From assembly GCF_014192105.1 (NCBI RefSeq), contig NZ_JACHXK010000015.1:1-64000 (forward strand): DNA of 64,000 nt. Reading direction: 5' to 3'. Every line of letters starts with the position of its first letter. The first letter of the stretch is position 1. The notes below the pieces were generated by a model. That model worked only from the letters and a program-made list of their open reading frames with translations. It did not search any database and was not told the origin of the DNA. A program made the position numbers and the translations under genes. Positions 522-25,831 of this stretch are shown here, piece after piece. Source of the DNA: Paenibacillus phyllosphaerae (GTDB taxonomy: Bacteria; Bacillota; Bacilli; Paenibacillales; Paenibacillaceae).

Positions 522-3500
522 TTGAAGAGATGGTGGAAGAAGAAATCGGTGCGGGGAGCGGCCGTAGCAGGCATGATCGCGGCAATGTGCGTGACTAGCT
601 TAACGCCGATTTATGCGGAGGTAGAGCAAGGAGATGCATCGGCCGCTCATCTGGCGGCTGCGGACGACAGTTTGTTGCTGCATTACACATTCGATCAAGG
701 ATCGGGAACGACGGCGTCAGATGCATCAGGCCATGAGTTACATGCGTCGTTGCAGGGTGGCGCCGCTTGGAGCACGGCGGGCAAGACGGGTGGCGCGATC
801 GATCTGAACGGCACGAACGGGTATTTGAAGCTGCCGAATGGGCTGATGGTGTCGCAGCATGACGTGACGATTTCATCCTGGGTGTATGCGGATACGCTGT
901 CGACCTGGGCACGCGTATTCGATTTTGGCTCAAGCGCAACGAACTATATGTTCTTGACGTTGAAGAATGGCGACGGGAATGTCCGGTTCGGCCTCCGGCC
1001 GGAAGGCAGCGGCGAGACAGGGCTAGCGGGACCTCCATTCCCGACATCGAAGGCGTGGCAGCATATCGCCTTTGTCATCTCGGGCAATACGTATACGCTC
1101 TACATTAACGGTATTCAGGTCGGTAGCGTGAGCAATATGCAGCTGGATCCATCCGATCTGGGAAGTACGGCGAACAATTATATCGGCCGATCGCAGTTCA
1201 GCGCAGATCCCTATTTCGATGGCAAATTGGATGACTTCCGCATCTACAGCAGAGCGCTGTCAGGTCAGGAACTCGTCAATCTGATGACTGACGATATGAG
1301 CGATTCGGAGATGCTTGCGTACGACAAGAACGCACTCGATCTGGGCGATACCTCGCAACAAACGGCTGACCTCACTTTTCCAGTGCTGGGCAAAGCTGGT
1401 TCTACGATTGCGTGGAGTTCGTCCGACCCTGCGGTCGTAAGCGCTGATGGGAAGGTTACGCGTCCAGCAGCCGGACAAGGCGACAAGAAGGTGACGTTAA
1501 CGGCCAAGATCACGAACGGGACTGCACAGGATACGAAAACATTCACGGTGATCGTATGGGAAGAAGGCTCAACGGCGTTCACGATGAACATTGACGGCAA
1601 AGACGCTGTCCATGAAGTCAGCCCGACGCTCTACGGCATTTTCTATGAGGACATCAACTATGCGGCAGACGGCGGCTTGTACGGCGATCTGATCCAGAAT
1701 CGCTCGTTCGAATTCGGAACTCCGCTCTACAGTTGGACGAAGAAGGCGGACGGAGGCGGTACAGGTACGCTCACGACCGAGACGGCCAATGCGCTTAATA
1801 CCAAGAATCCTCGTTATGCGCGGATCGCCGTGACGACTCCTGGGGATGGCGTCGGTATCTCCAATGCGGGTTACAGCGGCGGCATTGCCGTGCAGGCTGG
1901 TGAAAAATACAACTTCACCGCTTACGCACGCAGCGGCTCGGCGCTGACACAGCCGCTTGCGGCAATGCTTCGCGCAGCTGATGGCACCGTGATCGGCGCA
2001 TGTGAAGCAAGCGGCGTCACGGCCGAGTGGAGCCAGCTTGGCTGCTCGCTGCAGGCCAGCCAGACGGTAACGAATGCAAGCTTCGCCGTGACGCTGGCGG
2101 AAGCGGCCACGATTGATCTCGATATGGTATCGCTGTTCCCGGAGAAAACTTGGAACAACCGCGCGAACGGGCTGCGATATGATCTGGCGGAGATGCTGGA
2201 TGATTTGAACCCGGGCTTCCTTCGCTTCCCCGGCGGCTGCATCGTCGAGGGCGGTTCGATCGAGAACCGGTACCAGTGGAAGAATACGATCGGCGATGTT
2301 GCCGAACGCAAAGTACAGCCTAACCAATGGGCGTCGAACTATTATCAATCGTTCGGCCTCGGTTTCCAGGAATATTTCCAGCTGGCCGAAGATATCGGGG
2401 CTGAGCCGCTGCCGATCATCTTCGTCGGCCAGGTATCCTGCAACTCGAATCCGCCGAAAATCCCGATGGATCAGCTGCAGCCTTACATCCAGGATGCGCT
2501 TGATCTGATCGAGTACGCGAACGGTGACGTGACGACGGAATGGGGGGCTAAGCGGGCGACGAACGGTCATCCAGAGCCGTTCAACATGAAGTATCTCGGC
2601 GTCGGCAACGAGCTGTGGGGCGCGGATTACCTCGCACGCTACAATGCTTTCTATGAGGCAATCAAGGCGAAGTACCCCGACATCAAGTTGGTCTTAAGCG
2701 CTGGCTATGCGCCGAATGATACGTATTTCCACCAAACTTACGACTGGCTGGAGAGCAACGGGAATAAGGCCGATCTGGTCGACGAGCATATGTACCAATC
2801 GCCGGACTGGTTCTATAACAATGTGGCACGCTACGATAATTACGACCGCAGCGGTCCGCAAGTATTCGTCGGCGAATACGCGGCCCACGGCACAGGCAAA
2901 CGCAACAATATGGAGAGCGCGCTCGCCGAAGCGGCATTCATGACGGGCCTTGAACGCAACTCGGATGTTGTCGGCATGGCGTCCTTCGCGCCATTGTTCG
3001 CCCGCCAAGATAACACGCAGTGGACGACGGACCTGATCTGGTTCAATAACAATCAGTCCTACGCGACGCCGAACTACCATGTCCAGAGCATGTTCAGCAA
3101 TCATGTCGGCCAGCAGCTGATGAACACGGAGCTTAAGAAGAACAAGCCATCCTTGAACGACATCGCCGGCTCGATCGCACTGGGATCATGGAATACGGCG
3201 GTGGAGTATGACGATGTGAAAGTGACGAAGCACGACGGTTCGGTCTTGCTCAACGAGAGTTTCAGCAATGCGGACGCACTAACGGGTTGGACGAATTTCA
3301 AAGGCACATGGACGGTCCAGAACGAGACGTTGAAGCAGACGTCGGCGACGACGACGGACGCGAGACTGCTGCTCAATACAGGCGCGGACTGGTCGAATTA
3401 CACCGTCACGCTGAAGGCGCGGAAGACGAGCGGATCCGAAGGCTTCTTGATCGGTTTCGGCAGCAAAGACACGAACAACTACTATTGGTATAATCTCGGC

Positions 3501-5051
3501 GGCTGGAATAACACGCAGACGGTCGTAGAGAAAGCGGTGGGCGGTACCAAATCGACGATCAGCAACATCGTCACCAAAGGCGTCGAGACCAACCGTTGGT
3601 ACGATATTAAGGTGGAAGTGAACGGCTCAGGCATTCGTACCTATCTCGATGGCCAGCTGGTCAATGAAGTGGCACCGACGCTCGGACCGCTCTACAGCGT
3701 GACGACGAAGGACGAGGCAACGGGCGATCTGATCGTCAAAGTGGTCAACTCCTCCGGCAATACGCAGCTGACGGACGTGAATGTCGATGCGGAATACATC
3801 GATGCGAAAGCAACCGTCATCGAGTTGAAATCAGCTACAGCCGCAGCGGAGAACTCTTTCAGCGAGCCGGATCATGTCGCGCCGGTCACGTCGCAGAAGT
3901 CAGGATTCGGCCCATCGTTCACGTATGAGTTCCCGGCCTACTCGGTCACGGTGCTGAGGCTCAGAACAACGAACGATCCTGTCGTAACGGCGATCGATCC
4001 GGTCAGCGCTACAACCTCCATCGGCCAAATGCCGCAGCTTCCGTCATCCGTGCACGTGACTCTGAGCGATGGCAGTAAGGCTAGCAAATCCGTTGCGTGG
4101 AGCAAGCTCGACAACGAGCAAATCGCCAAGACGGGCATGTTCAGCGTGAAGGGAACAGTCGCCGGCACCTACGTGCCTGCGGAAGCGAGCGTCCGGGTGC
4201 AGGAGACGCAGGACGGCGCGCAATTAAGCGGTCCGGTTTCGGCAAAAGCCGGTGAGACAGTCGAGGTGACGTACAGCCTTTCCGGCCTTGACTCAGACAT
4301 CTACGCCAACGACGTTACGGTAAATTATGATCCTGAGCAGCTCGAATTCGTGTCCGCCGAAGCAGCCATTGACGGCTTCGCTGTCGTGGGGCAATCCGAA
4401 CCGGATGAGTCGGGCGCTATACGGTTCTTGCTGGCTGCAGACCAGGCCGGTTCAGGCGTAAGCCGCACGCAAGGCTTGCTGAAGCTGACATTCATCGTGC
4501 GGTCCTTAAGCGAATCCACGACAACCGAGTTAACGCTGAATGATGTCATCACAGCGGATGCCCAAGGGGTGGAGACCAATCAACCTGTTGGCCAGCCGCT
4601 GCAGATCGAGTTGTCGAAGGCCGACACATCGGTGGATAAAGCCGAGCTGAGCGCATTGATTACGCAGGCGGATACGCTGCATGACCAGTCGATCGAAGGC
4701 ACGAAGCCGGGCGAATATAAGGCCGGTTCCAAAACAGCCTTGAAGTCGGCAATCACGGCTGCGCAAGCCGTCCTCGACGACAACGCAGCTACGCAGCAGC
4801 AAGTGAATGCGGCGGTAACCGAACTGAATGCGGCCATCCAGACCTTCCAGGCAGCGATCAACGTGCCGAAACAGGGAGATTTCAACAACGATGGCAGATA
4901 CAGCATCGGCGACCTGGGCATCATCGCATCTCATTATGGCGCGACAAGCGAAGATGCGGATTGGAATACGATTAAGCAAGCGGATATCAACAACGACGGC
5001 AAGATCGATATCGTCGACATTTCTGCTGTCGCCAAATTGATCTTGCAATAG
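522..5051 (+). CDS. Secreted GH51-type alpha-L-arabinofuranosidase with LamG, cohesin, FIVAR and dockerin domains
   Basis: The predicted product is a 1509-residue exported enzyme that removes terminal alpha-L-arabinofuranosyl groups from plant polysaccharide. The start is TTG at 522, eight bases after AAGGAGGG. Order of parts: signal peptide 1-32; LamG/concanavalin-like 48-255; atrophied bacterial Ig-like 264-346; GH51 catalytic region from 351, with acid/base Glu697 in GVGNELWG and nucleophile Glu785 in VFVGEYAAHG. A second LamG-like fold (about 906-1050) is inserted into the C-terminal beta-sandwich that resumes to about 1149. Then come an Ig-like domain 1155-1228, cohesin 1233-1360, FIVAR 1373-1446, and type I dockerin 1452-1509 with two DxNxDGxxxxxD calcium loops. 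The GH51 call is firm; precise substrate is inferred. The same C-terminal triad occurs in two other proteins of this window. Confidence 0.93.
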   Translation: MKRWWKKKSVRGAAVAGMIAAMCVTSLTPIYAEVEQGDASAAHLAAADDSLLLHYTFDQGSGTTASDASGHELHASLQGGAAWSTAGKTGGAIDLNGTNGYLKLPNGLMVSQHDVTISSWVYADTLSTWARVFDFGSSATNYMFLTLKNGDGNVRFGLRPEGSGETGLAGPPFPTSKAWQHIAFVISGNTYTLYINGIQVGSVSNMQLDPSDLGSTANNYIGRSQFSADPYFDGKLDDFRIYSRALSGQELVNLMTDDMSDSEMLAYDKNALDLGDTSQQTADLTFPVLGKAGSTIAWSSSDPAVVSADGKVTRPAAGQGDKKVTLTAKITNGTAQDTKTFTVIVWEEGSTAFTMNIDGKDAVHEVSPTLYGIFYEDINYAADGGLYGDLIQNRSFEFGTPLYSWTKKADGGGTGTLTTETANALNTKNPRYARIAVTTPGDGVGISNAGYSGGIAVQAGEKYNFTAYARSGSALTQPLAAMLRAADGTVIGACEASGVTAEWSQLGCSLQASQTVTNASFAVTLAEAATIDLDMVSLFPEKTWNNRANGLRYDLAEMLDDLNPGFLRFPGGCIVEGGSIENRYQWKNTIGDVAERKVQPNQWASNYYQSFGLGFQEYFQLAEDIGAEPLPIIFVGQVSCNSNPPKIPMDQLQPYIQDALDLIEYANGDVTTEWGAKRATNGHPEPFNMKYLGVGNELWGADYLARYNAFYEAIKAKYPDIKLVLSAGYAPNDTYFHQTYDWLESNGNKADLVDEHMYQSPDWFYNNVARYDNYDRSGPQVFVGEYAAHGTGKRNNMESALAEAAFMTGLERNSDVVGMASFAPLFARQDNTQWTTDLIWFNNNQSYATPNYHVQSMFSNHVGQQLMNTELKKNKPSLNDIAGSIALGSWNTAVEYDDVKVTKHDGSVLLNESFSNADALTGWTNFKGTWTVQNETLKQTSATTTDARLLLNTGADWSNYTVTLKARKTSGSEGFLIGFGSKDTNNYYWYNLGGWNNTQTVVEKAVGGTKSTISNIVTKGVETNRWYDIKVEVNGSGIRTYLDGQLVNEVAPTLGPLYSVTTKDEATGDLIVKVVNSSGNTQLTDVNVDAEYIDAKATVIELKSATAAAENSFSEPDHVAPVTSQKSGFGPSFTYEFPAYSVTVLRLRTTNDPVVTAIDPVSATTSIGQMPQLPSSVHVTLSDGSKASKSVAWSKLDNEQIAKTGMFSVKGTVAGTYVPAEASVRVQETQDGAQLSGPVSAKAGETVEVTYSLSGLDSDIYANDVTVNYDPEQLEFVSAEAAIDGFAVVGQSEPDESGAIRFLLAADQAGSGVSRTQGLLKLTFIVRSLSESTTTELTLNDVITADAQGVETNQPVGQPLQIELSKADTSVDKAELSALITQADTLHDQSIEGTKPGEYKAGSKTALKSAITAAQAVLDDNAATQQQVNAAVTELNAAIQTFQAAINVPKQGDFNNDGRYSIGDLGIIASHYGATSEDADWNTIKQADINNDGKIDIVDISAVAKLILQ

Positions 5052-6202: not shown

Positions 6203-9200
6203 ATGAAGAACCAGCGCAAAATCGCATTAGTGGCTTTATCCGTCGCGATGCTGTCGGGCGATCTGCTGTCCGGGCAAGCGGTATTCGCAGCCGAGAACGA
6301 TACCCACTCACTCACAGACGCTTCGAAGGTACTGTCGCTTGAATTCGAGGACAATGTGCAGGACAGCTCCGGCAAAGGCAACAATGGCACGGTGCAAGGG
6401 GTCAACTATTCGTATGTGCCGGGCGTGAACGGCGGCAAGGCGCTGAAGCTCAACGGCAATACGTACGTCAACTTAGGTAAGAGCGGCACGCTGCAGCCCT
6501 CCGACCTGACGGTCTCCTTCTGGTTCAAACCGAACGAACGAATGACCGGCGAACAGATGCTCATGTGGAACAAAACGGTCTGGTATAGCGACGGTTGGTA
6601 CTTGAGCTCGGAGAACGACAGCAAGCCGCTGGCGATCTCGCTAGGCTCCTCGGATGCGAATAAGCAGCCGTACAAAGTAAGCGTGAACGGCTCGAGGGCG
6701 GACTTCTTCCCGGTCGATCAATGGACGCATGTAGCGATCACCTATGACAGCAAGACGAAGTCGGTGAACATTTATCGCAACGGCATCAAGCAGGCGACGA
6801 CGATCGATTTTGGCATCGGAACGGATGGCGCGGACGGCGTGATTACGGCGGATGAAACGACGCAGAAGTCGCTCGGCTTCAACGGTCCGCAATATAACGG
6901 CGCTTATGGCAAATATGCGCTCGACGACTACGAGATCTACAATACGGCGGCGAACTATACCGATATTATCGCGCTCTATGAAGAACAGTCCGGAACCGCC
7001 TTCGATTATGGCAAAATCGCGCAGGCCGATGCGGATGCCCTCACGCTTCCGGCGCAGACGCTGGGCAATCTGACGCTCCCGTCTGTTGGTCCGTCGGAAT
7101 CGTCGATCACGTGGACCTCGAGCAACGAAGCCGTCATCGATTCGCGGGGCAAGGTCACCCGTCCATCCGAGGGAGATACTACCGTTACGCTCACCGCAGC
7201 GGTTACTTTCGGAACGAAGAGCGTCACGCGGACATTCCAGGTCGTGGTCCCTGCGAAGAAGGTATCGGAATCGCTGCAAAATGTTCCGATGGAGAACGTG
7301 ACGCTGACCGACAGCTATTACGTCAATGCGTTCAACAAAGACGTCGAGTATCTGTTATCGCTCGAAGCCGACCGTCTGCTTAGCGCCTTCCGCACGACGA
7401 GCGGTCTGACGCCCAAAGCTGCCGTCTACGAGGGGTGGGAGAATACCGAAATTCGCGGCCATACGCTCGGCCACTATCTGAACGCGATCTCGATGGCGTA
7501 CGTGAACGCGAAAGGCGAGACCAAGGCGAAGCTGAAGGAGCGGATCGATTATATCATCGACGAGCTGGCGGCGTGCCAAGAGGCGAACGGCAACGGTTAC
7601 GTCTCCGCGTTCCCGACTTCGTTCCTCGACCGGGTGGAGAACGGCCAGGCGGTGTGGGTGCCTTGGTACACGATGCACAAGATTCTCGGCGGTCTCGTCA
7701 GCGCGGCCGAATACACCGACAACGAGAAAGCGCTCGAAGTGGCGGAGAAGCTCGGCGAATACGTCTACAATCGCACGTCCAAGTGGACGGAAGCGACGAA
7801 GTCCCGGGTGCTCAGCGTGGAATACGGCGGCATGAACGATGCGCTCTATGACCTGTATGCCCTTACGGGGAATGACCATTTCGTTGCAGCGGCCGAGAAA
7901 TTCGACGAGATGACGCTGTTCGATCAGCTGTACAACAACGTGGACGTGCTGAACGGCAAGCATGCGAACACGACGATCCCGAAGGTGATCGGCGCGCTGA
8001 AGCGGTACCAGGTGCTGGAAGAGTCGGAGGACAACGAGTATTACCTGCAAGTGGCCAAAAACTTTTTCGATATGGTGGTCGAGCACCATTCGTACATCAC
8101 CGGCGGCAACAGCGAGAACGAACATTTCGGCCCGGCGGATTCCCTCGATGCCGAACGCACGAACGTCAATAACGAGACGTGCAACGTCTATAACATGCTG
8201 AAGCTCTCCCGTGAGCTGTTCAAGATTACGAAGGATCGCAAATACGCCGACTATTACGAGAATGCCTTCACCAATGCGATTATGGCCTCACAGAACCCGG
8301 AGACGGGCATGACGATGTACTTCCAGCCGATGGACACCGGGTACTTCAAGGTGTTCAGCAGCGAGTTCTTCCACTTCTGGTGCTGTACCGGTACGGGAAT
8401 GGAGAATTTCGCCAAGCTGAACGACAGCGTCTACTTCACGGGCAATCACAGCGTCTATGTCAATACGTACCTGTCCTCGGTCCTCGACTTGGCTGATCAG
8501 AATATCAAATTGACGCAGGAATCTCATCTGCCAAATGTTGGAGCGGGCGATGACGCATCAGGACTGGTCACCTTCACGGTGAACACGACAGGCGAGACCG
8601 ATACGGCACTTAAGTTCCGGATCCCGGACTGGGCGAAGACTAATCCTTCCGTGAAGGTCAACGGTTCCCTGGTGACCGATTATGCCGTTGAAGACGGGTA
8701 TCTCGTGTTGGCGCAGCAATGGACGGATGGCACGACGATTGAACTGGACTTCCCGATGGAGGTCGTCGCTTATGGGCTGCCGGACAATCCGGACGTAATC
8801 GCGTTCAAATATGGTCCTGTCGTGCTTAGCGCGGGACTCGGTACGAACAATATGACGACCAGCCCGCATGGGATCAACGTGCTGAAGCCGAATCCGGACA
8901 ATGCGGCCCGCGATTTCATTACCGTGACCGAGGGCAGTTTGGACGAATGGCGGACTAACATTGCGCAGCATCTGGTAAAGACGGAGGGCAAGCTCGAATT
9001 TACGCTGAAGGGAACCGACGCGGATGGAGGCGTACTGACGTTCACGCCGCATTTTGAACGCTATGAGGATCGTTACGGCATTTATTTCGAACTGATCACG
9101 ACGGATTCGGCGGGTTATCAGCAATCGATTCTCGAGGCCAAAGAGGCCGGTCGGACCGAGGATGCCACCGTCAGCTTCGTCATCGTGGCCAACGATCAAT

Positions 9201-10756
9201 ATGAGCTGGCGGCCAATCGCCAGACGGCCAATTCCACGGTCGGCGTCTACAATGGCAAGTCGTACCGGGATGCGACGGCGAACGGCTGGTTCAGCTACGA
9301 TATGGAAGTCACGCCTGGCGTGGCGAACTATCTGCTCAGCACGTATTACAGCGGCGACGCGGGACGAAGCTTCGATCTCTATGTCGATAATACAAAGCTT
9401 GCGACCGAGACGATCGAGAACCGGAACCCGGGCAACTTCTACAATCAGCGGCGTCTTATCACGCAGTCGCTGGTCGACAACAGCCGGACCAAAGTGGTGA
9501 CCGAGACGGACAGCGGCGGCAATCAGGTCGAGCGTACCGTTCACTATGTCACCGTCAAGTTCCAGAGCACGGGCGGATTCGTCGGCGGGCTGTTCGATAT
9601 CTTCCGCGTCATCACCGATTACAAGGCAAATGCGAATCTGAAGCAGCTTGCTTTTGATAACGGCGCGCTGTCCGAAGCCTTCGATCCGGAAGTGAGCGAG
9701 TATACGCTGAAGGTGCCGGCCTCCGCTACATCGGTCAACATGACGGTTGCCCCAACGGACGAATACGGGCTCGTGTACGACGGCGACATCCTCATTAATG
9801 ACGCCATCAGCCGCAAGATCGCGCTGACCGGCGACACGACAGAGCTGGTCTTAACGTCCAAGGCGGAGGATCATACGACGTCGAAGCAGTATAAAGTCCA
9901 TATCGTGAAGAGCGACGAGGTTGAGGTTAGCCCGATTCTTCTGACAGGGCCCGCGAGCGTGGCAGCCAATCAGATCTTCGATGTGAAGCTGAGCTCGACG
10001 GATGAATCCGCTTCTTCGCTCGCCCAAGACTTCACCGTCCATTACGATCCGGACAAAGTCGAGTTCGTGGCCGCCGAGTCGCTGCGTGACGGATTCAAGA
10101 TCGTGGAGTCGGCGCAGACGCCTGGCGCGATCCGGTTCTTGACGGTTAATCTGGGGCAAGGCGACGCCGGCGCTGGCCCGCTAGATCTGAAGCTTCAATT
10201 CAAGGCCAAAGATACAGGAGCGAACGAGACGGGCAGCATCTCGGTATCGGATATCCTGTTCGCTGACAGTACCGGCGCAGAGACCGTCATCGCTAGTCCG
10301 CTACCGTATAGCTTTGCGATTACGGCCGCCGTGACGCGCGATGCATTGAGCGAAGCGATCGCCGATGCACAGTCGCTGCATGAGGCAGCGGTAGAAGGGA
10401 CGAAAGCGGGTCAATACCCTGCAGGTTCGAAGGCCGCGCTGCAATCCGCGATCCAGGCAGCGAATGCGGTGCTCGGCAACGCCTCCGCTACGCAGACGCA
10501 GATCAATGAGGCGCTGGAGCAGTTGACCGCCGCCGTTCAGACGTTCCGCGCGCTCGTCATCAAGCAATCGGCCGGCGACATCAACGGCGACAGCCGGATT
10601 CGCGTCAGCGACCTGGCGATCGCGGCCGCCCACTACGGCATGACGAACGAGGATCCGAACTGGAATACGTACCGATCCGCCGACCTGAACAACGACGGCG
10701 TCATCGACATCATCGACCTTGCCGCGTTGGCGAGACTGATTCTGGCGGAAGGCTAA
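6203..10756 (+). CDS. Secreted GH127-type beta-L-arabinofuranosidase with LamG, cohesin, FIVAR and dockerin domains
   Basis: The predicted product is a 1517-residue exported enzyme of the DUF1680/GH127 (or related GH146) group, which cleaves beta-L-arabinofuranosides. Parts: signal peptide about 1-29 (ending AVFA); LamG about 42-262; atrophied Ig-like about 270-350; catalytic (alpha/alpha)6 region about 355-905. Zinc/cysteine-site signatures known from HypBA1 are present: Glu658 and Cys660 in NNETCN, and Cys727-Cys728 in FWCCTGTG. Next come a DUF6805/CBM-like beta domain about 987-1139, cadherin-like beta-sandwich 1142-1238, cohesin 1245-1369, FIVAR 1376-1453 and dockerin 1459-1517 (loops DINGDSRIRVSD and DLNNDGVIDIID). 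The family call is firm. Gene and tail closely parallel the GH51 gene upstream, suggesting joint action on arabinosylated polymers. Confidence 0.92.
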   Translation: MKNQRKIALVALSVAMLSGDLLSGQAVFAAENDTHSLTDASKVLSLEFEDNVQDSSGKGNNGTVQGVNYSYVPGVNGGKALKLNGNTYVNLGKSGTLQPSDLTVSFWFKPNERMTGEQMLMWNKTVWYSDGWYLSSENDSKPLAISLGSSDANKQPYKVSVNGSRADFFPVDQWTHVAITYDSKTKSVNIYRNGIKQATTIDFGIGTDGADGVITADETTQKSLGFNGPQYNGAYGKYALDDYEIYNTAANYTDIIALYEEQSGTAFDYGKIAQADADALTLPAQTLGNLTLPSVGPSESSITWTSSNEAVIDSRGKVTRPSEGDTTVTLTAAVTFGTKSVTRTFQVVVPAKKVSESLQNVPMENVTLTDSYYVNAFNKDVEYLLSLEADRLLSAFRTTSGLTPKAAVYEGWENTEIRGHTLGHYLNAISMAYVNAKGETKAKLKERIDYIIDELAACQEANGNGYVSAFPTSFLDRVENGQAVWVPWYTMHKILGGLVSAAEYTDNEKALEVAEKLGEYVYNRTSKWTEATKSRVLSVEYGGMNDALYDLYALTGNDHFVAAAEKFDEMTLFDQLYNNVDVLNGKHANTTIPKVIGALKRYQVLEESEDNEYYLQVAKNFFDMVVEHHSYITGGNSENEHFGPADSLDAERTNVNNETCNVYNMLKLSRELFKITKDRKYADYYENAFTNAIMASQNPETGMTMYFQPMDTGYFKVFSSEFFHFWCCTGTGMENFAKLNDSVYFTGNHSVYVNTYLSSVLDLADQNIKLTQESHLPNVGAGDDASGLVTFTVNTTGETDTALKFRIPDWAKTNPSVKVNGSLVTDYAVEDGYLVLAQQWTDGTTIELDFPMEVVAYGLPDNPDVIAFKYGPVVLSAGLGTNNMTTSPHGINVLKPNPDNAARDFITVTEGSLDEWRTNIAQHLVKTEGKLEFTLKGTDADGGVLTFTPHFERYEDRYGIYFELITTDSAGYQQSILEAKEAGRTEDATVSFVIVANDQYELAANRQTANSTVGVYNGKSYRDATANGWFSYDMEVTPGVANYLLSTYYSGDAGRSFDLYVDNTKLATETIENRNPGNFYNQRRLITQSLVDNSRTKVVTETDSGGNQVERTVHYVTVKFQSTGGFVGGLFDIFRVITDYKANANLKQLAFDNGALSEAFDPEVSEYTLKVPASATSVNMTVAPTDEYGLVYDGDILINDAISRKIALTGDTTELVLTSKAEDHTTSKQYKVHIVKSDEVEVSPILLTGPASVAANQIFDVKLSSTDESASSLAQDFTVHYDPDKVEFVAAESLRDGFKIVESAQTPGAIRFLTVNLGQGDAGAGPLDLKLQFKAKDTGANETGSISVSDILFADSTGAETVIASPLPYSFAITAAVTRDALSEAIADAQSLHEAAVEGTKAGQYPAGSKAALQSAIQAANAVLGNASATQTQINEALEQLTAAVQTFRALVIKQSAGDINGDSRIRVSDLAIAAAHYGMTNEDPNWNTYRSADLNNDGVIDIIDLAALARLILAEG

Positions 10757-19183: not shown

Positions 19184-21325
19184 ATGTCTACGCCCATCTT
19201 AGCAACCAAAATCAATGTACCGCCGCGTCGGCCCAACACCGTTCTCCGACAACGGTTAATCGATAAGCTTCGAAATGGTTTGTATCGTAAATTAACCCTT
19301 ATCTCTGCCCCCGCCGGTTATGGCAAAACAACTCTGGTTGGCGAATGGATTGCCAACTGCGGACGGCCTGCTGCATGGCTATCACTCGAGGAAGGAGACA
19401 CCGAACTTACGCGCTTCCTGTCCTGTCTCATATCTTCCCTGCAGACACTTGACGAGAAGATCGGAGAGGGCGTTCTCACGGTCCTTCAATCGCCCGGGCC
19501 GCCGAATACGGAGTCGATGCTAGCGGCGCTTCTTCAGGAGGCCGCCGATTTGGCACCTTTCATACTCGTCCTGGACGATTATCACACCGCACATTCGAAG
19601 CCCATCGAAGAGGCTGTTACCTTCCTGCTCGACCATCTTCCCGCATCCATTCACCTGGCGATGATTACCCGTGAGGATCCGCTTATTCCCTTGGCCCGGT
19701 TAAGGGCTCGTGACCAGTTAACCGAGTTGCGCGCAGCCGACTTAAGATTTAGCTCTTCCGAGATCGTAGGATTCCTAAACGGGGTCATGGGACTTGATCT
19801 CCCCACGGACCAAATAGTCGCGCTCGCTTCTCGTACGGAAGGCTGGATTGCCGGCTTGCAATTGGCCGCGCTCTCGATACAGGGCGATCATGGGACGGAT
19901 CGGTTCATGCAGTCCATCGCTGGCAGTCACCATTTCGTCCTGGATTATTTGGTGGAAGAGGTCCTGCTTCGGCAACCGGAATCCGTTCAATCGTTCTTGA
20001 TGCAGACTTCGATTCTCGACCGCCTGAGCGATTCCCTTGTCGATGCTGTCGTTCCCGATCCCGCGACGTCGGGCAAGCAACGGCTGCTTGATCTGGAACG
20101 TCAGAACTTGTTCGTCATTCCCTTGGATCATGAACGGCGGTGGTATCGCTACCATCACTTGTTTGCCGAATCCTTGCAGAGGCGGTTGCAGGATCATCTC
20201 GATAGAGGCGGTATCGCGGAATTGCATGGAAGGGCAAGTACGTGGTACGAAAGCCACGGCTTCGAGATCGAAGCTTTTCGTCATGCGACAGAATCGGTTG
20301 ATCTGGCACGTGCCGCGCGTCTGCTTGAAGGCGATGGGATGCCGCTGCATCTTCGAGGGGCAGCGGAGCTTTCGCTGAAATGGCTGGAATCGCTGCCTGT
20401 CGCGGAACTGGATGCCAGACCCTCGTTGTGGGTGATGTACGGCTCCGTATTGCTGATAACGGGTAAGCCAACGCACGTCGAACAGAAGCTGCGAGCGGCC
20501 GAGGCAGCGCTGGGAGGCGTCGATCAGGACGTCCGGATTCGAGATCTGTTCGGTCTGATTGCCGCAACCCGTGCAGCGGTTGCCTCGTTAATGTTGGCCG
20601 TTAAACCTTATGGCGCTCAGCTGAAATTACAGGCAGCCGAAGCGTCGATGCAAATGACGGTACATGACGATAAGACCGATGACCTGATCGGCCTGATTGC
20701 CCCTGCGAAGGAGGCTTGGGTGGACGAAAGCCAAGAGATTGCCCAAGTGATTACACAAGCCAGCCGCGCATTAGAATACCTTCGCCCGGATAATTACCAT
20801 GTGCGGACATCGGCCGCATGGATGCTCGGCGTCGCGTGCCAGCGGCGGGGAGACCATGACGGAGCTCGCAAGGCTTATAACGAAGTTATTGCATACAGTC
20901 ACATGTTGGGCCACCAACTGATGGCTGTCCTGTCTCTTATCGGGCTCGGCCAAATAGAAGAAGCGGACAATAGCCCTCGCGTGGCGGAGGACTGTTACGA
21001 AGAAGCTCTTCGGTTAGCCGGCGATCTGCCGCTTCCGGCACTTCGCGAAGCGCGGGCTAGTCTGGAGCGCGTACGTAAGAACCTTAGGCCTGAATTGAAA
21101 GGCGGCCTGGTCGAGCCGCTATCCAGGCGCGAACTCGAGGTGCTGGCGCTCATCGCCAAGGGACTGTCCAACCGGGACATCGGCGAGCGACTCTTCTTGG
21201 CCGTGGACACGGTCAAAGGGCACAACCGCAGAATTTTCGAGAAACTCGGGGTGCAAAGACGCACGGAAGCGATTGCCCGTGCCCAGGAGTTGAATCTGCT
21301 CCCAGACCCGCACAAACCACACTAA
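19184..21325 (+). CDS. MalT-like LuxR family ATP-dependent regulator
   Basis: 713 residues. The N-terminal STAND-type NTPase carries Walker A with Lys48 (APAGYGKTT, 42-50) and Walker B-like LVLDDYH. A TPR-like helical sensor follows, then a LuxR helix-turn-helix from about 645 (LSRRELEVLALIAKGLSNRDIGERL). It is shorter than classic MalT (about 900 residues), mainly in the helical sensor. There are no maltose genes nearby. The DUF4386 membrane gene 67 bases downstream is a plausible target or partner. The start ATG 19184 has only a weak ribosome binding site. Confidence 0.85.
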   Translation: MSTPILATKINVPPRRPNTVLRQRLIDKLRNGLYRKLTLISAPAGYGKTTLVGEWIANCGRPAAWLSLEEGDTELTRFLSCLISSLQTLDEKIGEGVLTVLQSPGPPNTESMLAALLQEAADLAPFILVLDDYHTAHSKPIEEAVTFLLDHLPASIHLAMITREDPLIPLARLRARDQLTELRAADLRFSSSEIVGFLNGVMGLDLPTDQIVALASRTEGWIAGLQLAALSIQGDHGTDRFMQSIAGSHHFVLDYLVEEVLLRQPESVQSFLMQTSILDRLSDSLVDAVVPDPATSGKQRLLDLERQNLFVIPLDHERRWYRYHHLFAESLQRRLQDHLDRGGIAELHGRASTWYESHGFEIEAFRHATESVDLARAARLLEGDGMPLHLRGAAELSLKWLESLPVAELDARPSLWVMYGSVLLITGKPTHVEQKLRAAEAALGGVDQDVRIRDLFGLIAATRAAVASLMLAVKPYGAQLKLQAAEASMQMTVHDDKTDDLIGLIAPAKEAWVDESQEIAQVITQASRALEYLRPDNYHVRTSAAWMLGVACQRRGDHDGARKAYNEVIAYSHMLGHQLMAVLSLIGLGQIEEADNSPRVAEDCYEEALRLAGDLPLPALREARASLERVRKNLRPELKGGLVEPLSRRELEVLALIAKGLSNRDIGERLFLAVDTVKGHNRRIFEKLGVQRRTEAIARAQELNLLPDPHKPH

Positions 21326-21391: not shown

Positions 21392-22045
21392 GTGGATAAC
21401 ATGGCAAGGATGGCAGGGGTACTTTTTCTAGTGTCGACGGTGGTTTTCTTAATCGGGAGCGGGTTACTGAATCCCGTTCTCCAACGGCCCGAATTTCTCG
21501 CTGATCTATATTCGGATCGAACAAAGGTAGTCGGCGGATTGATGTTGGAGCTGATTAACGCTATAGCGGTTGCGGGGATTGCGATGCTGCTGTACCCGGC
21601 GTTAAAAAAGCATAACGAGGCGTTCGCGCTCGGATACTTCGGTTCCCGGATGCTTGAGTCCGCCATTCTAATCATCAGCCTAGTTGGTCCGATCGTACTC
21701 ATCGCGTTCAGCGAAGATTATATGGCGGCGGAAGCTTCCGGGCGTCCTTTGTTCCAAACAATAGCCAATATTGCGGTAGATGCGCATTTTATGCTCTTCG
21801 AACTGGCTATGGTCGTGCTAAGCCTCGGCAGCTTATTATTCTGCCATGTGCTGTACCGCGCCAAGCTGGTTCCGCGATTTTTGCCCATTATCGGTTTCAT
21901 CGGGTACATCGGATTGTTAACCAGCAGTTGTCTGGCAATCGCCGGTCATGATATCGGCAGCGTTCTGTATATCCCGGGGGCGATATTTGAGATTCTTCTC
22001 CCGCTCTGGCTCATCGTGAAGGGATTTAATCCGCGGGCGGTGTAA
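21392..22045 (+). CDS. DUF4386 family membrane protein
   Basis: 217 residues with about six membrane segments, matching the DUF4386 pattern (start MARMAGVLFLVSTVVFL, later LYPALKKHNEAFALGYFGSRMLES). The GTG start at 21392 follows GAAGGGGA. Function of the family is unknown. It lies just behind the MalT-like regulator, a neighbourhood in which DUF4386 genes are often found, but has its own promoter candidate. Confidence 0.8.
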   Translation: MDNMARMAGVLFLVSTVVFLIGSGLLNPVLQRPEFLADLYSDRTKVVGGLMLELINAIAVAGIAMLLYPALKKHNEAFALGYFGSRMLESAILIISLVGPIVLIAFSEDYMAAEASGRPLFQTIANIAVDAHFMLFELAMVVLSLGSLLFCHVLYRAKLVPRFLPIIGFIGYIGLLTSSCLAIAGHDIGSVLYIPGAIFEILLPLWLIVKGFNPRAV

Positions 22046-22058
22046 CTTGTTCGGGCTG

Positions 22059-22481
22059 CTAAAGGGGGATGCGGCTGAAATAAGGTCCAAGCCAGTCCTT
22101 CTCGTGCGTAATCACCAAAGTCCAGCTAAAGTCGGCCGAAACGATATAGATATCCGATTGGTTGTTCACATCGTCGATGGTCAGATTGGCTGCATGCTCA
22201 AGCCGTAATGCATAATCCGAATGTTGATAAAAAAGAAAACAGGGCCCTTTAGATTCGTGCATGAATGCTTGCACGGCCTCTTCCTTCTCCAGACAGTCTG
22301 TTCGACGATAGCTGAACAGATGCCACAGATAGCCGCCGTCACCATTGAGGAATATGTTCTCCTTGTCTTGCTCGCTCAGATGAGCTGCAAAATGAGCTTC
22401 CCATTGCGAACGCAGATAACCACCCCAGATCGGAATCTCAAGCACTCGCATTTTCTTCTTCAGCCGTTCAGTAATCACCAT
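22059..22481 (-). CDS. DUF4275 family protein
   Basis: 140 residues. ATG 22481 is preceded by GGAGGATC; the frame extends eight codons further without support. The layout (VLEIPIWGGYLRSQWEAHFAAHL, GYLWHLFSYRRTDCLEKEEA, FYQHSDYALRLEHA, DIYIVSADFSWTLVITHE) fits DUF4275, a small Bacillales family of unknown function. Soluble, no signal peptide. Convergent with the DUF4386 gene. Confidence 0.75.
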   Translation of the reverse strand: MVITERLKKKMRVLEIPIWGGYLRSQWEAHFAAHLSEQDKENIFLNGDGGYLWHLFSYRRTDCLEKEEAVQAFMHESKGPCFLFYQHSDYALRLEHAANLTIDDVNNQSDIYIVSADFSWTLVITHEKDWLGPYFSRIPL

Positions 22482-22600
22482 GATGAGGATCCTCCGTAAA
22501 CACAATCTATGGAACTATCATATTAAATATTAACAGCGAGGTTTCGTTAATAGTAGAAGTCAGTCTTTAACAAGTTCAAATGAAGTAGGTGCGGTGCAAC

Positions 22601-22888
22601 ATGCTATCCAGAATTCACCCTTATTACTATTTAGGCGGATTTTTCGGCGGGGTGCTCGGGTATATCATATCGAAAATTTATCAAATTTGGGCGATTGTTT
22701 ACCGCGAGAGTCAATTCGATGTCAATATGACTAGCTCTTGGCCTTCAGGTTCACCGCCACTATGGATTACCGCGACAGAACATCCCATGCGGTTTTCTTT
22801 TTGGATGGTACTTATTTATATCATTATTGGCGTTGTCTCCACGATCATCTTATTAAATCGTTCCAACGCTAACAAGGTGAATGAATGA
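22601..22888 (+). CDS. Small two-pass membrane protein
   Basis: 95 residues, family not recognised. Two hydrophobic segments (YYYLGGFFGGVLGYIIS near the start and FWMVLIYIIIGVVSTIILL near the end) flank an extracellular-looking loop. ATG 22601 follows AGTAGGTG; a GTG at 22589 is the alternative. More AT-rich than its surroundings. No functional clue from neighbours. Confidence 0.6.
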   Translation: MLSRIHPYYYLGGFFGGVLGYIISKIYQIWAIVYRESQFDVNMTSSWPSGSPPLWITATEHPMRFSFWMVLIYIIIGVVSTIILLNRSNANKVNE

Positions 22889-23019
22889 TAATTACACCGG
22901 TGCTCACCATACCAAACGAAACATGCATGCCCTTAAAGTTGTATGCTGCAAACGTTTAACCCTCTTAATGGCTCACTAAGAGGATCTATGAATCTAAGGC
23001 GCTGAAAGCGAGGCGGAGT

Positions 23020-23448
23020 ATGGCGAATAAACCCGTTATTGCATTAGGGACCGAAGAGGAAAGTGCCTATATTCGGAACCGATTGATAGCTTTTAATGCG
23101 GAACATGTTCCCGAAGCATTAAGCTCACGTTACGAAGAAATCAATTTAAGCCTCAAAGATGACAACGGCCAGGTGGTTGGCGGCATGCTGTCTACGCTGT
23201 GCTGGAATTGGATTGAGGTCGATATTCTGTGGGTCGACGAGTCTCGCAGAGGATTGGGATACGGGACATATTTATTGCAGGAGATTGAACGGATCGCAAG
23301 AGAAAAAGGATGCACGATGATCAAACTCAACACGTTCAGCTTCCAGGCCCCGGAATTTTACCGGAAGCAGGGATACGAGCAAATTGCAGTGATCCATGAT
23401 GCACCGACCGGGAGCAGCCATTATTATTTCAAGAAAGCGATTCGCTGA
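23020..23448 (+). CDS. GNAT family N-acetyltransferase
   Basis: 142 residues, a complete single GNAT domain. It has strand IEVDILWVDESRRGLGYGTYLLQ with the acetyl-CoA loop RRGLGYG, followed by FYRKQGYEQ. GAGGCGGAG precedes the ATG. The acceptor is unknown. It lies 27 bases before the ECF sigma gene, so the two may share a transcript. Confidence 0.85.
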   Translation: MANKPVIALGTEEESAYIRNRLIAFNAEHVPEALSSRYEEINLSLKDDNGQVVGGMLSTLCWNWIEVDILWVDESRRGLGYGTYLLQEIERIAREKGCTMIKLNTFSFQAPEFYRKQGYEQIAVIHDAPTGSSHYYFKKAIR

Positions 23449-23475
23449 GAAATGACTGCCGATTGGAGGGGGACT

Positions 23476-24459
23476 ATGACGGAGATTCACCTGAATAACA
23501 GTTCTGCTTCCAGCATCTCTGAGACGAATCTTGTCGTGGCTGCGACCGGCGGCGATATGGAAGCTTTCGCGGAGCTGGTTCGCATCTATACCAATGCGGT
23601 ATGCGCAATCGCTTATGACCTGCTGCGGGACTACCATCTTGCTCAGGATATCGCGCAAGAAACGTTCGTGAAAGCTCACCGTAATCTGACGAGCCTCCGG
23701 CATCCCGAGAAATTCGGCAGTTGGCTGTATGCCATCGCGCTCCGCCAATCCATTGACCACAAGCGATCCATAGCCCGCAAAATCCAGATGCAAGAGGAGC
23801 TCGGGCAGCTTGCGCTCCGAGAAGAGAGACGGTACGCGGAGGATGGGATGATTCGGCATGAAATGAGTCTGGATGTTAAGCAAGCGTTGGAGCAGCTCGA
23901 TCAGACGAGCCGCACCATCCTGCTGTCTTACTACGTGAGCGAAATCAAGATGCCCGAAATCGCGCGGATGCTCAATCTGTCGGTGGCGGCTGTCGAAAGC
24001 CGAATGAGGCGGAGCCGCAACCTATTGAAGGAGAGGCATTTGTCGGATTGGGCCGCGTATTTTCGAAGGCACGAAGCTACCGACAAGCTGGTGGGCCCAG
24101 TCATGGAAAGACTGGTCAAACAAGCCGGTCAATTCTATCTTCCGGTTTCGAACAGAGCCCGCTCGAAGGAATGGTTCGTCCGCGTCCTCGGCCTATCGCT
24201 CGACCACAATGGGCATGTTATGCTGCCGTCGGGACATTGCCTCTTCTTGATCGAAGTGAGCGAAGCGGTCCTTCAGGAACGTTCTTCGTCCAAGAATACG
24301 GGTCTCGTCTTTATGATCGACGACGCGGATCATTTTCGGCAGGCGATGGAAGAACAAGGTGTTCCGACGTTCCGGGAGACCATACAAGGAACCGGTCAGG
24401 TGCAGATCCTTTTCTATGACCCCGACGGCAATCGTTACGGTGCATGCTCGCTAACCTAA
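23476..24459 (+). CDS. ECF-type sigma factor fused to a VOC (glyoxalase-like) domain
   Basis: 327 residues. ATG 23476 follows GGAGGGGG. Residues 20-95 form sigma region 2 (DYHLAQDIAQETFVKAH, FGSWLYAIALR). Residues 130-185 form region 4 (LDQTSRTILLSYYVSEIKMPEIARML). Residues about 215-325 form a VOC fold (FYLPVSNRARSKEWFVRVLGL through FYDPDGNRYGA). The usual VOC metal ligands, an early His and a late Glu, are absent, so the domain is more likely a ligand sensor than an enzyme. No anti-sigma gene is nearby. A stand-alone VOC gene follows 75 bases later and is the best candidate partner. Confidence 0.87.
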   Translation: MTEIHLNNSSASSISETNLVVAATGGDMEAFAELVRIYTNAVCAIAYDLLRDYHLAQDIAQETFVKAHRNLTSLRHPEKFGSWLYAIALRQSIDHKRSIARKIQMQEELGQLALREERRYAEDGMIRHEMSLDVKQALEQLDQTSRTILLSYYVSEIKMPEIARMLNLSVAAVESRMRRSRNLLKERHLSDWAAYFRRHEATDKLVGPVMERLVKQAGQFYLPVSNRARSKEWFVRVLGLSLDHNGHVMLPSGHCLFLIEVSEAVLQERSSSKNTGLVFMIDDADHFRQAMEEQGVPTFRETIQGTGQVQILFYDPDGNRYGACSLT

Positions 24460-24534
24460 TTTTTTTCTGTGGGCATGACGGACTTTGAACTCGTGCTTCG
24501 TCTATATGATGAATTCACATTAGGAGGGATTAAG

Positions 24535-24963
24535 TTGGAACAACAACCCGTTACGGAATCGAGGCAATCGCCTCAAACGGAGAAGTCGCCGCTTGTCAAA
24601 GGCGTCTTATGCAACTATTTGCCGGTGTCGGATCTCCCCCGGGCGAGAGCATGGTATATGCAGGCGCTAGGCTTGAAGCCGTTCGAGCGGAATGACAGCA
24701 TCTTGATCATGGGCAGCGGGCAATGGATCTTTTTCCTTGAATCGAAAGACAGGCCGAATGCCAATTTTACGACGGACAACTGGGAGGGCGACGATTTCGA
24801 GATGTTCTCCCTCACTTTCGAGACCGATGATATCGTTACGCTCCATAGCTCGCTGAGAGAGCATGGCGCGGCGGTCGAAGCGATTACGGACAATGGCTCG
24901 TGCGGCCTGCAGTTCCGGTTTAAGGATGTGGATGGCAATCGATTTAACGTCTGGCAGAATTAA
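24535..24963 (+). CDS. VOC family protein
   Basis: 142 residues, one VOC (glyoxalase/bleomycin-resistance) module: NYLPVSDLPRARAWYMQALGL at the start and FKDVDGNRFNVWQ at the end. TTG 24535 follows AGGAGGG; an upstream ATG at 24475 lacks a ribosome binding site. As in the fused domain just upstream, the His and Glu metal ligands are missing. The product may therefore bind a small molecule without catalysis. Likely co-transcribed with the sigma-VOC fusion. Confidence 0.8.
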   Translation: MEQQPVTESRQSPQTEKSPLVKGVLCNYLPVSDLPRARAWYMQALGLKPFERNDSILIMGSGQWIFFLESKDRPNANFTTDNWEGDDFEMFSLTFETDDIVTLHSSLREHGAAVEAITDNGSCGLQFRFKDVDGNRFNVWQN

Positions 24964-24996
24964 CTTGCCGGATGCAGGTGCTATTCCGTACGAACC

Positions 24997-25035
24997 AAAC
25001 AGGGGGCAGCCGATGAGGCTTGCTCCCTGTTTCAT
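24997..25035 (+). terminator. Rho-independent terminator after the VOC gene
   Basis: AAACAGGGGGCA (24997-25008) pairs with TGCTCCCTGTTT (25021-25032) with one G-U pair. The T-run is part of the stem end (GTTTC). Confidence 0.65.
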
Positions 25036-25138
25036 GGAGAGTGGAAGGATATCCTGTGCCTCATCTTGAATTCTTCTTAGGTCAAGGATTGCGATCCATG
25101 GAGACGAGAAGCGTCTACGAACGGGAGGATGAAGGACA

Positions 25139-25831
25139 GTGGTACAAGCGAAGGAGACCAATACGGCAATCATTCCGGTGCCTAAGCTGGAAGAGGATTG
25201 CTACGATTGGTGGGAACGGCACGAGCAGGTGCTGCAGGAGCAGGCTGCGATTAACCCTGAGGTGGTGCTGATCGGCGATTCCATCACGCATTTCTGGGGC
25301 GGACAACCACGGACGCCAGGAATGGAGGGGGCTCCGAATTCGTGGAATTCCGTCTTCGCCCCATACAGAGTTCTCAATCTGGGCTTCGGCTGGGACCGCA
25401 CGCAGAATGTGTTGTGGCGGCTTGATCATGGCCAGCTGAAAGGACTGTCGCCGCGTACGGTCGTCATCCTGATCGGCACGAACAATACGAGCGAAACGGA
25501 GAATGCGCGGGCGAACGAGCCGGAGGAAATCGGCGAAGGCTTGAAGGCTATATGTGACCGGGTAGAGACGCTGGTCCCGGGGGCGCGGATCGTCATTATG
25601 GCTGTTTTCCCGCGGGAACAACATCCGGATCATCCACGCCGCGAACAGATTGCCCGGATCAATTCCTTCTACGCGAAGCTGGCCGGTGAACGGAATTATA
25701 CGTTTATTGATATCGGCCCGCAATTGCTTGAGCAAGACGGTACGCTGTCTTCGGAGACGGCTCCGGACTTCTGCCATCTGACGGATCGGGGTTATCAGCA
25801 TTGGGCGGACGCGCTGCGTCAAGTTCTATAG
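25139..25831 (+). CDS. SGNH/GDSL hydrolase (PAF-acetylhydrolase-like)
   Basis: 230 residues, no signal peptide. The fold belongs to the SGNH esterases: block I IGDSIT with Ser48, block II LGFGWDRTQNV (Gly), block III GTNN, and block V DFCHLTD with Asp210 and His213. It most resembles the platelet-activating-factor acetylhydrolase beta/gamma subunit branch. It probably removes acyl groups from a lipid or sugar. GTG 25139 follows GGGAGGATGAAGGA. Single-gene unit with its own terminator. Confidence 0.85.
   Translation: MVQAKETNTAIIPVPKLEEDCYDWWERHEQVLQEQAAINPEVVLIGDSITHFWGGQPRTPGMEGAPNSWNSVFAPYRVLNLGFGWDRTQNVLWRLDHGQLKGLSPRTVVILIGTNNTSETENARANEPEEIGEGLKAICDRVETLVPGARIVIMAVFPREQHPDHPRREQIARINSFYAKLAGERNYTFIDIGPQLLEQDGTLSSETAPDFCHLTDRGYQHWADALRQVL

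What the first reader, a model, noticed from the sequence alone, without database searches (positions are those of the whole stretch)
23476..24963. ECF sigma factor fused to a metal-ligand-free VOC domain, followed by a free VOC protein of the same type
Some ECF groups carry C-terminal sensor domains (for example SnoaL-like), but a VOC fold is unusual to me. Both VOC modules lack the His/Glu metal ligands, which suggests ligand sensing. No anti-sigma gene is present, so the fused domain or the free VOC protein may be the control element.
Basis: partly seen in the sequence, partly recalled or inferred. Interest (0 to 1): 0.5.

Follow-up and report, generated by a model that had tools for sequence, protein, structure and literature searches.

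The report
Sigma factor with paired ligand-binding domains
A soil bacterium carries a transcription starter protein with a built-in small-molecule-binding domain, and the gene right behind it, which encodes a matching binding protein, carries a conserved switch that this starter probably turns on; the two may form one sensor.

Summary
The fusion is real. [quoted passage not shown] 24535-24963 (TTG start) encodes a free VOC protein. It is a recurrent two-gene module. In Paenibacillaceae I found a clade of ECF factors with exchanged extensions: one VOC, two VOCs, or pentapeptide repeats. In the window's sub-clade, 20 of 20 intact ECF-VOC genes in the tree are followed directly by a partner VOC gene, and 20 of 20 have the ECF-type promoter-like element GACGG-N17-CGTCTAT[A/T] at that junction (window 24477-24506), against 0 of 3310 background windows. 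A similar element precedes the sigma gene itself in 11 of 13 two-VOC or pentapeptide relatives. So the partner gene is very probably the direct, perhaps only, target. AlphaFold2 models of modest confidence pair the two VOCs like known two-VOC proteins, in the read-through pair and in a natural ECF-VOC-VOC protein. Whether the partner is feedback control, shared sensor or ligand-binding effector is untested; a coevolution test gave no support for pairing. It works like ECF41 or ECF42 but failed their domain tests; group ECF264 could not be tested. New variant of a known kind.

The parts
23020..23448 (+). GNAT acetyltransferase gene, 27 bases before the sigma start, perhaps co-transcribed here; not a conserved part of the module
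   Evidence: PF00583 52.5 bits; in no neighbour group of three or more loci
23476..24459 (+). ECF sigma factor with fused C-terminal VOC domain (alternative start 23452)
23575..23778 (+). sigma region 2 (residues 42-109 of the 335-aa ORF)
   Evidence: PF04542 51.5 bits
23872..24021 (+). sigma region 4 (residues 141-190)
   Evidence: PF08281 40.4 bits
24130..24435 (+). fused VOC domain (residues 227-328)
   Evidence: PF00903 24.9 bits against cut-off 20.6
24477..24481 (+). putative -35 element GACGG
   Evidence: strict element in 20 of 20 intact clade loci; window match 24477-24504
24499..24507 (+). putative -10 element CGTCTATAT, 17 bases after the -35 element
24522..24527 (+). AGGAGG ribosome-binding site of the partner VOC gene
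   Evidence: read from sequence
24535..24963 (+). partner (free) VOC protein, TTG start
   Evidence: PF00903 43.3 bits; conserved partner family

Best explanation
A one-component sigma switch with a split sensor. [quoted passage not shown] Inferred with good support: the sigma factor transcribes the partner VOC gene from that element, and this is its main or only target. Inferred with moderate support: the fused VOC and the partner VOC pair as the two halves of a two-VOC barrel, as in the ECF-VOC-VOC relatives where both halves sit on one chain, and form a small-molecule pocket at their interface. Ligand binding, or supply of the partner, changes whether sigma2/sigma4 can reach RNA polymerase or DNA, so the partner both binds the ligand and closes a feedback loop. 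The ligand and the sign of the feedback are unknown.
For: Pfam domains of both proteins. The strict element lies at the junction in 20 of 22 loci labelled paired, which is all 20 of the paired clade, and in 0 of 3310 overlapping 200-base background windows of the same loci, one strand. A similar element (GACGG-N15..18-[CT]GTCT) lies upstream of the sigma gene in 8 of 10 pentapeptide and 3 of 3 tandem-VOC relatives, and in 0 of 1805 background windows of 360 bases. Exact matches sit at this locus in all 18 paired or broken-pair genomes shown in the cut listing (24 were searched), with 3 exact matches elsewhere in those 18. Sigma tree: paired clade 96/86, tandem form its sister at 94/77. Partner search: 24 of the 25 places at 212 bits or more lie next to an ECF-VOC gene or its remains. 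The partner is more conserved (mean pairwise identity 68.5%) than sigma (53.0%) or fused VOC (44.2%) over 20 loci. AlphaFold2: the read-through pair aligns across both VOCs to single-chain two-VOC proteins (4huz Z 19.6, rmsd 3.2, 242 residues); the natural tandem protein of L012 likewise (6bnn Z 20.0, rmsd 3.3, 247 residues).
Against: Pairing was modelled in an artificially joined chain with a shallow alignment (10 rows, three of them tandem proteins), pTM 0.49 and 0.52 for the natural tandem; the sigma-VOC arrangement is not resolved, and no homodimer control could be run. Distance-matrix coevolution of fused and partner VOC beyond the sigma domain is absent (partial r 0.12; 295 of 2000 permutations reach it). 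The tandem VOCs are internal duplicates, not orthologues of fused plus partner. Eleven single-VOC family loci in the tree have no adjacent VOC by my distance rule. Partner genes persist beside sigma genes that look broken in 4 draft genomes and once alone, so the partner may work without the sigma factor.
Confidence: 0.5

Rival explanations
1. Sensor and effector, no pairing. The fused VOC senses a compound as a homodimer or monomer; the sigma factor then induces the partner VOC, which alone sequesters or converts the same compound, like an antibiotic-binding resistance protein. The partner has no regulatory role.
For: The partner gene carries the target promoter-like element; it is the most conserved of the three units; it survives beside apparently broken sigma genes and once alone; stand-alone paralogues exist; coevolution with the fused VOC beyond the sigma domain is absent; solved VOCs aligned to the model's second VOC include TnmS1 and TnmS3, titled an antibiotic-binding protein and a complex with tiancimycin (Z 9.4 each).
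Against: 20 of 20 intact clade sigma genes have the partner directly behind; tandem relatives put two VOCs on the sigma chain itself; both models pair the VOCs.
Confidence: 0.33
2. The fused VOC is a structural remnant; the sigma factor is controlled by how much of it is made (here perhaps from the GNAT operon) and the partner is an ordinary target.
For: The fused VOC diverges fastest and has only 12 invariant residues of 108; the GACGG pattern was not found upstream of the sigma gene in 0 of 22 paired loci, although by eye L159, L164 and L166 have AACGG-N17/18-TGTCT there.
Against: The VOC frame is open in all 20 clade members of the tree, and PF00903 is matched by 36 of 49 clade proteins at E 0.01 or better, 10 more having pentapeptide repeats; a remnant would decay.
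Confidence: 0.1
3. The element between the genes is read by another ECF sigma factor of the cell, and the fused factor controls unknown genes.
For: Other ECF-like genes are present in the genome; the -10 core CGTC is common to many ECF promoters (PMC3426412, passages read).
Against: The same -35 core precedes the sigma gene itself in related ECF factors, and the strict element marks this locus.
Confidence: 0.07

Closest known systems
ECF41 sigma factors (Ecf41Bli, Ecf41Rsp, SigJ)
   Same: ECF core plus C-terminal regulatory domain, no obvious anti-sigma gene, one neighbouring target gene with a conserved promoter of the form -35 / N16 / CGTC (PMC3426412, abstract and other passages seen)
   Different: VOC instead of SnoaL-like extension; partner is a VOC instead of a decarboxylase, oxidoreductase or epimerase; -35 is GACGG instead of TGTCACA; target encodes a relative of the sensor domain
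ECF42 sigma factors (TPR extension, YCII-type neighbour)
   Same: extension plus a conserved small neighbour protein whose domain also occurs fused to other ECF factors; control by protein interaction proposed (PMC8999054, section 3.5 read)
   Different: VOC instead of TPR and YCII
ECF56 SigG1-RsfG
   Same: fused small-molecule-type domain plus a neighbouring gene for an interacting control protein that also has its own transcription start (PMC7730460, passages seen)
   Different: SnoaL_2 extension; RsfG is said to have no conserved Pfam domain
ECF264 (model protein from Saccharibacillus sacchari)
   Same: an ECF group with a regulatory extension, listed under 'Others', from a Paenibacillaceae species (PMC8999054 Table 2; taxonomy)
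   Different: cannot be compared: the classification paper is not held
Antibiotic-binding VOC proteins (TnmS1, TnmS3)
   Same: VOC fold; among the solved single-VOC chains aligned to the partner VOC and matched by the partner profile (5umq E 8.4e-5, 5w27 E 6.2e-4)
   Different: no sigma factor in those entries; FosA 1npb scores better by profile (E 8.6e-8); ligand of the present pair unknown

Membership tests
ECF sigma factor (group IV) | sigma regions 2 and 4 | tested here: met
   (49 of 49 clade proteins)
VOC superfamily | PF00903 match above cut-off | tested here: met
   both window proteins
VOC metalloenzymes | full set of metal ligands | tested here: not met
   FosA ligand positions read C26, M90/S92, N138 in the partner (alignment; FosA ligands recalled); fused domain judged by eye
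Fosfomycin resistance transferases | NCBIfam cut-off | tested here: not met
   best 22.1 bits against 250
ECF41 | SnoaL-like C-terminal domain | tested here: not met
   no SnoaL family among the 11 Pfam hits of P0001 to E 1
ECF41 | -35 TGTCACA, -10 CGTC | tested here: not met
   -10 core agrees, -35 is GACGG
ECF42 | TPR extension with YCII-type neighbour | tested here: not met
   no TPR or YCII match for P0001 or P0002
ECF56 | SnoaL_2 extension | tested here: not met
ECF264 | group profile | not testable with these tools
   classification paper not held
ECF with class I anti-sigma factor | adjacent anti-sigma gene | tested here: inconclusive
   no anti-sigma domain among Pfam hits of seven window proteins, 21392-25831; short domains may be missed

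The most novel reading that the evidence does not exclude
A split-sensor sigma factor: half of a two-VOC ligand barrel is fused to the sigma factor and the other half is made in trans from the sigma factor's only target promoter, so that ligand sensing, output and feedback are one complementation event; tandem-VOC relatives are the one-chain form, and within the same sigma clade the sensor has been exchanged between VOC types and pentapeptide repeats.
Probability: 0.35. Interest if true: 0.75.

Novelty: new variant of a known kind. Interest (0 to 1): 0.55.

Why it matters
Many ECF groups with extensions have no known mechanism: PMC8999054 says that of at least 26 such groups 15 remain to be studied. 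This module is a compact, testable case: sensor domain, partner, promoter sequence and probable target lie within 1.5 kb, the arrangement recurs in 20 genomes of one clade, and a natural one-chain version exists. A short -35/-10 code could also give a new sigma/promoter pair for gene circuits.

Tried and rejected
Viral contigs with the partner VOC: no relative. PADLOC: no match for P0001, P0002 or the GNAT protein. A wider regulon: GACGG-N15..18-CGTCTA gives 33 sites in the genome against 46 for the reversed control; over 43 genomes the longer pattern with one mismatch gives 192 matches against 166 for the control (my sums); the second exact match in this genome lies inside a 573-aa ORF that looks like a response regulator (L252). 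Sigma-A-type promoter near the pair: one match, on the other strand, fewer than in shuffles. Coevolution of fused and partner VOC beyond sigma: none. A shared neighbour other than the VOC: no printed neighbour group of three or more loci holds more than 3 of the 22 paired loci, apart from the ECF/VOC group itself and a group (L162, L165, window) of reverse-strand ORFs, of which the window's and, by its L162 position, that one overlap the partner gene; the gene caller was crude and flanks were about 4 kb. Distribution: a class sample of 398 genomes gave two full-length ECF-VOC matches outside the family (G542, G703); a phylum sample of 348 gave one more extension-bearing ECF whose extension was not assigned (G766). 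Only the best few candidates per genome are scored (5, at most 9), so all these counts are lower bounds. Dropped before the tree: L119, L131, L137, L138, L139 (broken, truncated or ordinary). L135 and L155 were labelled paired but lie outside the clade and lack the strict element. L016 is a broken relative. The 212-bit line for partners was drawn afterwards at a gap in scores (212.9 to 196.7); the two places just below that I know to be beside ECF-VOC genes are G037 and G313:C3 (L155, L135).

Literature: no paper describing an ECF-VOC or ECF-glyoxalase fusion was recognised in the listings (11 and 23 empty); most listed papers were not opened. The library is open-licence only, and the 2021 ECF reclassification paper (doi 10.1093/nar/gkaa1229) is not held, so an entry there cannot be excluded. 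Seen: passages of PMC8999054 and its section 3.5 in two parts (19, 22); passages of PMC8103513, PMC8195603, PMC3426412, PMC7730460. PMC12274486 and the TnmS3 papers were seen in listings only.

Full report
What is there. The window lies in a 7.9-Mb genome; the closest named relatives of the protein are from Paenibacillus and Cohnella, so I take the unnamed family to be Paenibacillaceae. At 23476-24459 an ECF sigma factor (Sigma70_r2, Sigma70_r4_2) carries a VOC domain (PF00903) at its C-terminus; a second VOC protein follows at 24535-24963. A ribosome-binding site and alignment with relatives place the second start at TTG 24535. No anti-sigma domain was found among the seven proteins tested around it. 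A GNAT gene lies 27 bases upstream, but it belongs to no neighbour group of three or more loci.

How common it is. A genome-contig search found the architecture in named species: Paenibacillus soyae and Paenibacillus sp. DMB20 with ECF-VOC plus free VOC; Cohnella caldifontis, C. cholangitidis and P. oenotherae with ECF-VOC-VOC on one chain; P. cellulosilyticus and P. terricola with one VOC. A profile search of 394 family genomes gave 51 places at 150 bits or more, in 43 genomes, above a gap to the next score of 141 (five candidates scored per genome, so a lower bound). Of the 51, 22 were labelled paired, 11 single-VOC, 3 tandem-VOC and 10 pentapeptide; 5 were set aside as broken, truncated or ordinary. 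In Pfam, 49 of 49 selected proteins of this clade (two from outside the family) match sigma regions 2 and 4, 36 match PF00903 and 10 pentapeptide repeats at E 0.01 or better. Outside the family, the class sample of 398 genomes gave two full-length matches.

Evolution. In the sigma-domain tree, with 18 ordinary ECF factors for comparison, the 48 extension-bearing factors fall on one side (support 80/92). The paired clade has 20 rows (96/86), its sister is the tandem form (94/77), and the pentapeptide form is one clade (100/100). In the VOC tree, which has few columns and several long branches, the fused VOCs of the paired clade form one clade (96/95); partners and most stand-alone paralogues, with one divergent fused VOC (L135), form another (95/95), the two being sisters (90/74). 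The two tandem VOCs arose by internal duplication (99/99, together with the single VOC of L201). Distant VOC types are attached to other members of the same sigma lineage. Two VOCs per module were thus reached by two routes.

The partner is tied to the sigma factor. Searching 388 family genomes with the partner profile, 25 places score 212 bits or more. Of these, 19 lie behind an intact ECF-VOC gene, 5 (in 4 genomes) beside an apparently broken one, and 1 is a second, lone copy in a genome that also has the pair. The twentieth intact pair (G218) is not in that listing. The genomes are drafts in part, so some breaks could be sequencing errors. Over the 20 paired loci the partner is the most conserved unit: mean pairwise identity 68.5%, against 53.0% for sigma and 44.2% for the fused VOC; 42 of 119 partner positions are invariant, against 30 of 172 in sigma and 12 of 108 in the fused VOC.

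The promoter-like element. At the junction of the two genes lies GACGG-N17-CGTCTAT[A/T]: 20 of 22 loci labelled paired, all 20 of the clade, and 0 of 3310 overlapping 200-base background windows, one strand, of the same loci. In two members it overlaps the end of the sigma gene (L159, L163). Of the loci with broken sigma genes, L131, L184, L186 and L187 keep it and L185 does not; the lone copy L188 lacks it. The related form GACGG-N15..18-[CT]GTCT precedes the sigma gene itself in 8 of 10 pentapeptide and 3 of 3 tandem members, in 0 of 13 single-VOC members by this pattern, and in 0 of 1805 background windows of 360 bases. In 43 genomes, 24 with an intact or broken pair and 19 without, one mismatch allowed, all had matches, 192 in sum against 166 for the reversed control. 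Exact matches sat at the pair in all 18 paired or broken-pair genomes shown (G308 with two copies), with three exact matches elsewhere in those genomes and one in a genome without the pair; the listing was cut. Of the six paired genomes not shown, five have the strict element at the locus and one, with a broken sigma gene, does not (L185). So the sigma factor probably serves one site, as reported for ECF41 (PMC3426412, passages).

Structure. AlphaFold2 on the read-through chain (window 23476-24963, TAA as Q; mean pLDDT 69, pTM 0.49) puts the two VOCs together so that they align across 211-496 with single-chain two-VOC proteins: 4huz Z 19.6 (rmsd 3.2, 242 residues), 1zsw Z 19.4 (3.3, 248), 3oaj Z 19.3 (2.9, 233). 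The natural tandem protein of Cohnella cholangitidis gives the same (mean pLDDT 61, pTM 0.52; 6bnn Z 20.0, rmsd 3.3, 247 residues). Both models are of modest confidence, the first is joined artificially, and the alignments contain tandem rows; the sigma-VOC arrangement is open. In the PDB sequence search no listed best stretch covered both the sigma and the VOC part (60 of 62 shown).

Mechanism. I think the fused VOC senses a small molecule, with the partner completing or modulating the pocket, and the sigma factor transcribes the partner gene. Shown by sequence: domains, order, co-occurrence, element. Inferred: promoter use, pairing, ligand, feedback. Against pairing: no coevolution beyond the sigma domain (partial r 0.12; 295 of 2000 permutations), and partners that outlive broken sigma genes. 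The main rival is that the partner is simply an induced ligand-binding effector.

Known or new. It works like ECF41 (fused domain, no obvious anti-sigma, one neighbouring target) and resembles ECF42 and ECF56 in having a small neighbour protein, but fails their defining domain tests. Nine paper searches showed no VOC-fused ECF in their listings (two were empty; most papers were not opened). ECF264, represented by a Paenibacillaceae protein and listed with an unstudied extension, could be the same sigma group; that could not be tested. Hence: new variant of a known kind.

Noticed in passing
L125-L130, L132-L134, L136 (sigma genes): Ten ECF factors of the same clade have pentapeptide-repeat extensions instead of VOC; 8 of 10 have the GACGG-N-GTCT element upstream of their own gene.
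   Followed up: partly
L120, L121, L147, L149, L150, L152, L156, L200 (sigma genes): Single-VOC ECF factors whose VOC belongs to distant VOC subfamilies, one (L121) grouping with a stand-alone VOC from L119 (100/88), suggesting repeated exchange of the sensor domain.
   Followed up: partly
L123, L145, L153, L154 upstream of the sigma gene; also L159, L164, L166: Single-VOC members show CGTC-type -10 motifs with different -35 sequences, and three paired members show AACGG-N17/18-TGTCT upstream of the sigma gene (by eye): perhaps drifted promoter codes and autoregulation.
   Followed up: no
L196, L198, L203: Three stand-alone paralogues of the partner VOC have another type of ECF-like gene (197-266 aa ORF) about 1 to 3 kb away on the same strand.
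   Followed up: no
window 21392-22045, with L121 and L147: The DUF4386 gene upstream of the module has relatives near two single-VOC sigma genes.
   Followed up: no
L254 1495-2433: An extension-bearing ECF factor in another Bacillota family has a C-terminal stretch that resembles part of the neighbouring reverse-strand protein at 542-1276 (by eye).
   Followed up: no
window 522-5051, 6203-10756, 53290-59775: Large proteins, two of them arabinofuranosidase-type, all with cohesin-domain matches and two also with dockerin matches, an unusual mix on one polypeptide.
   Followed up: no
window 19184-21325: LuxR/MalT-type regulator (TPR plus GerE) upstream of the module.
   Followed up: no
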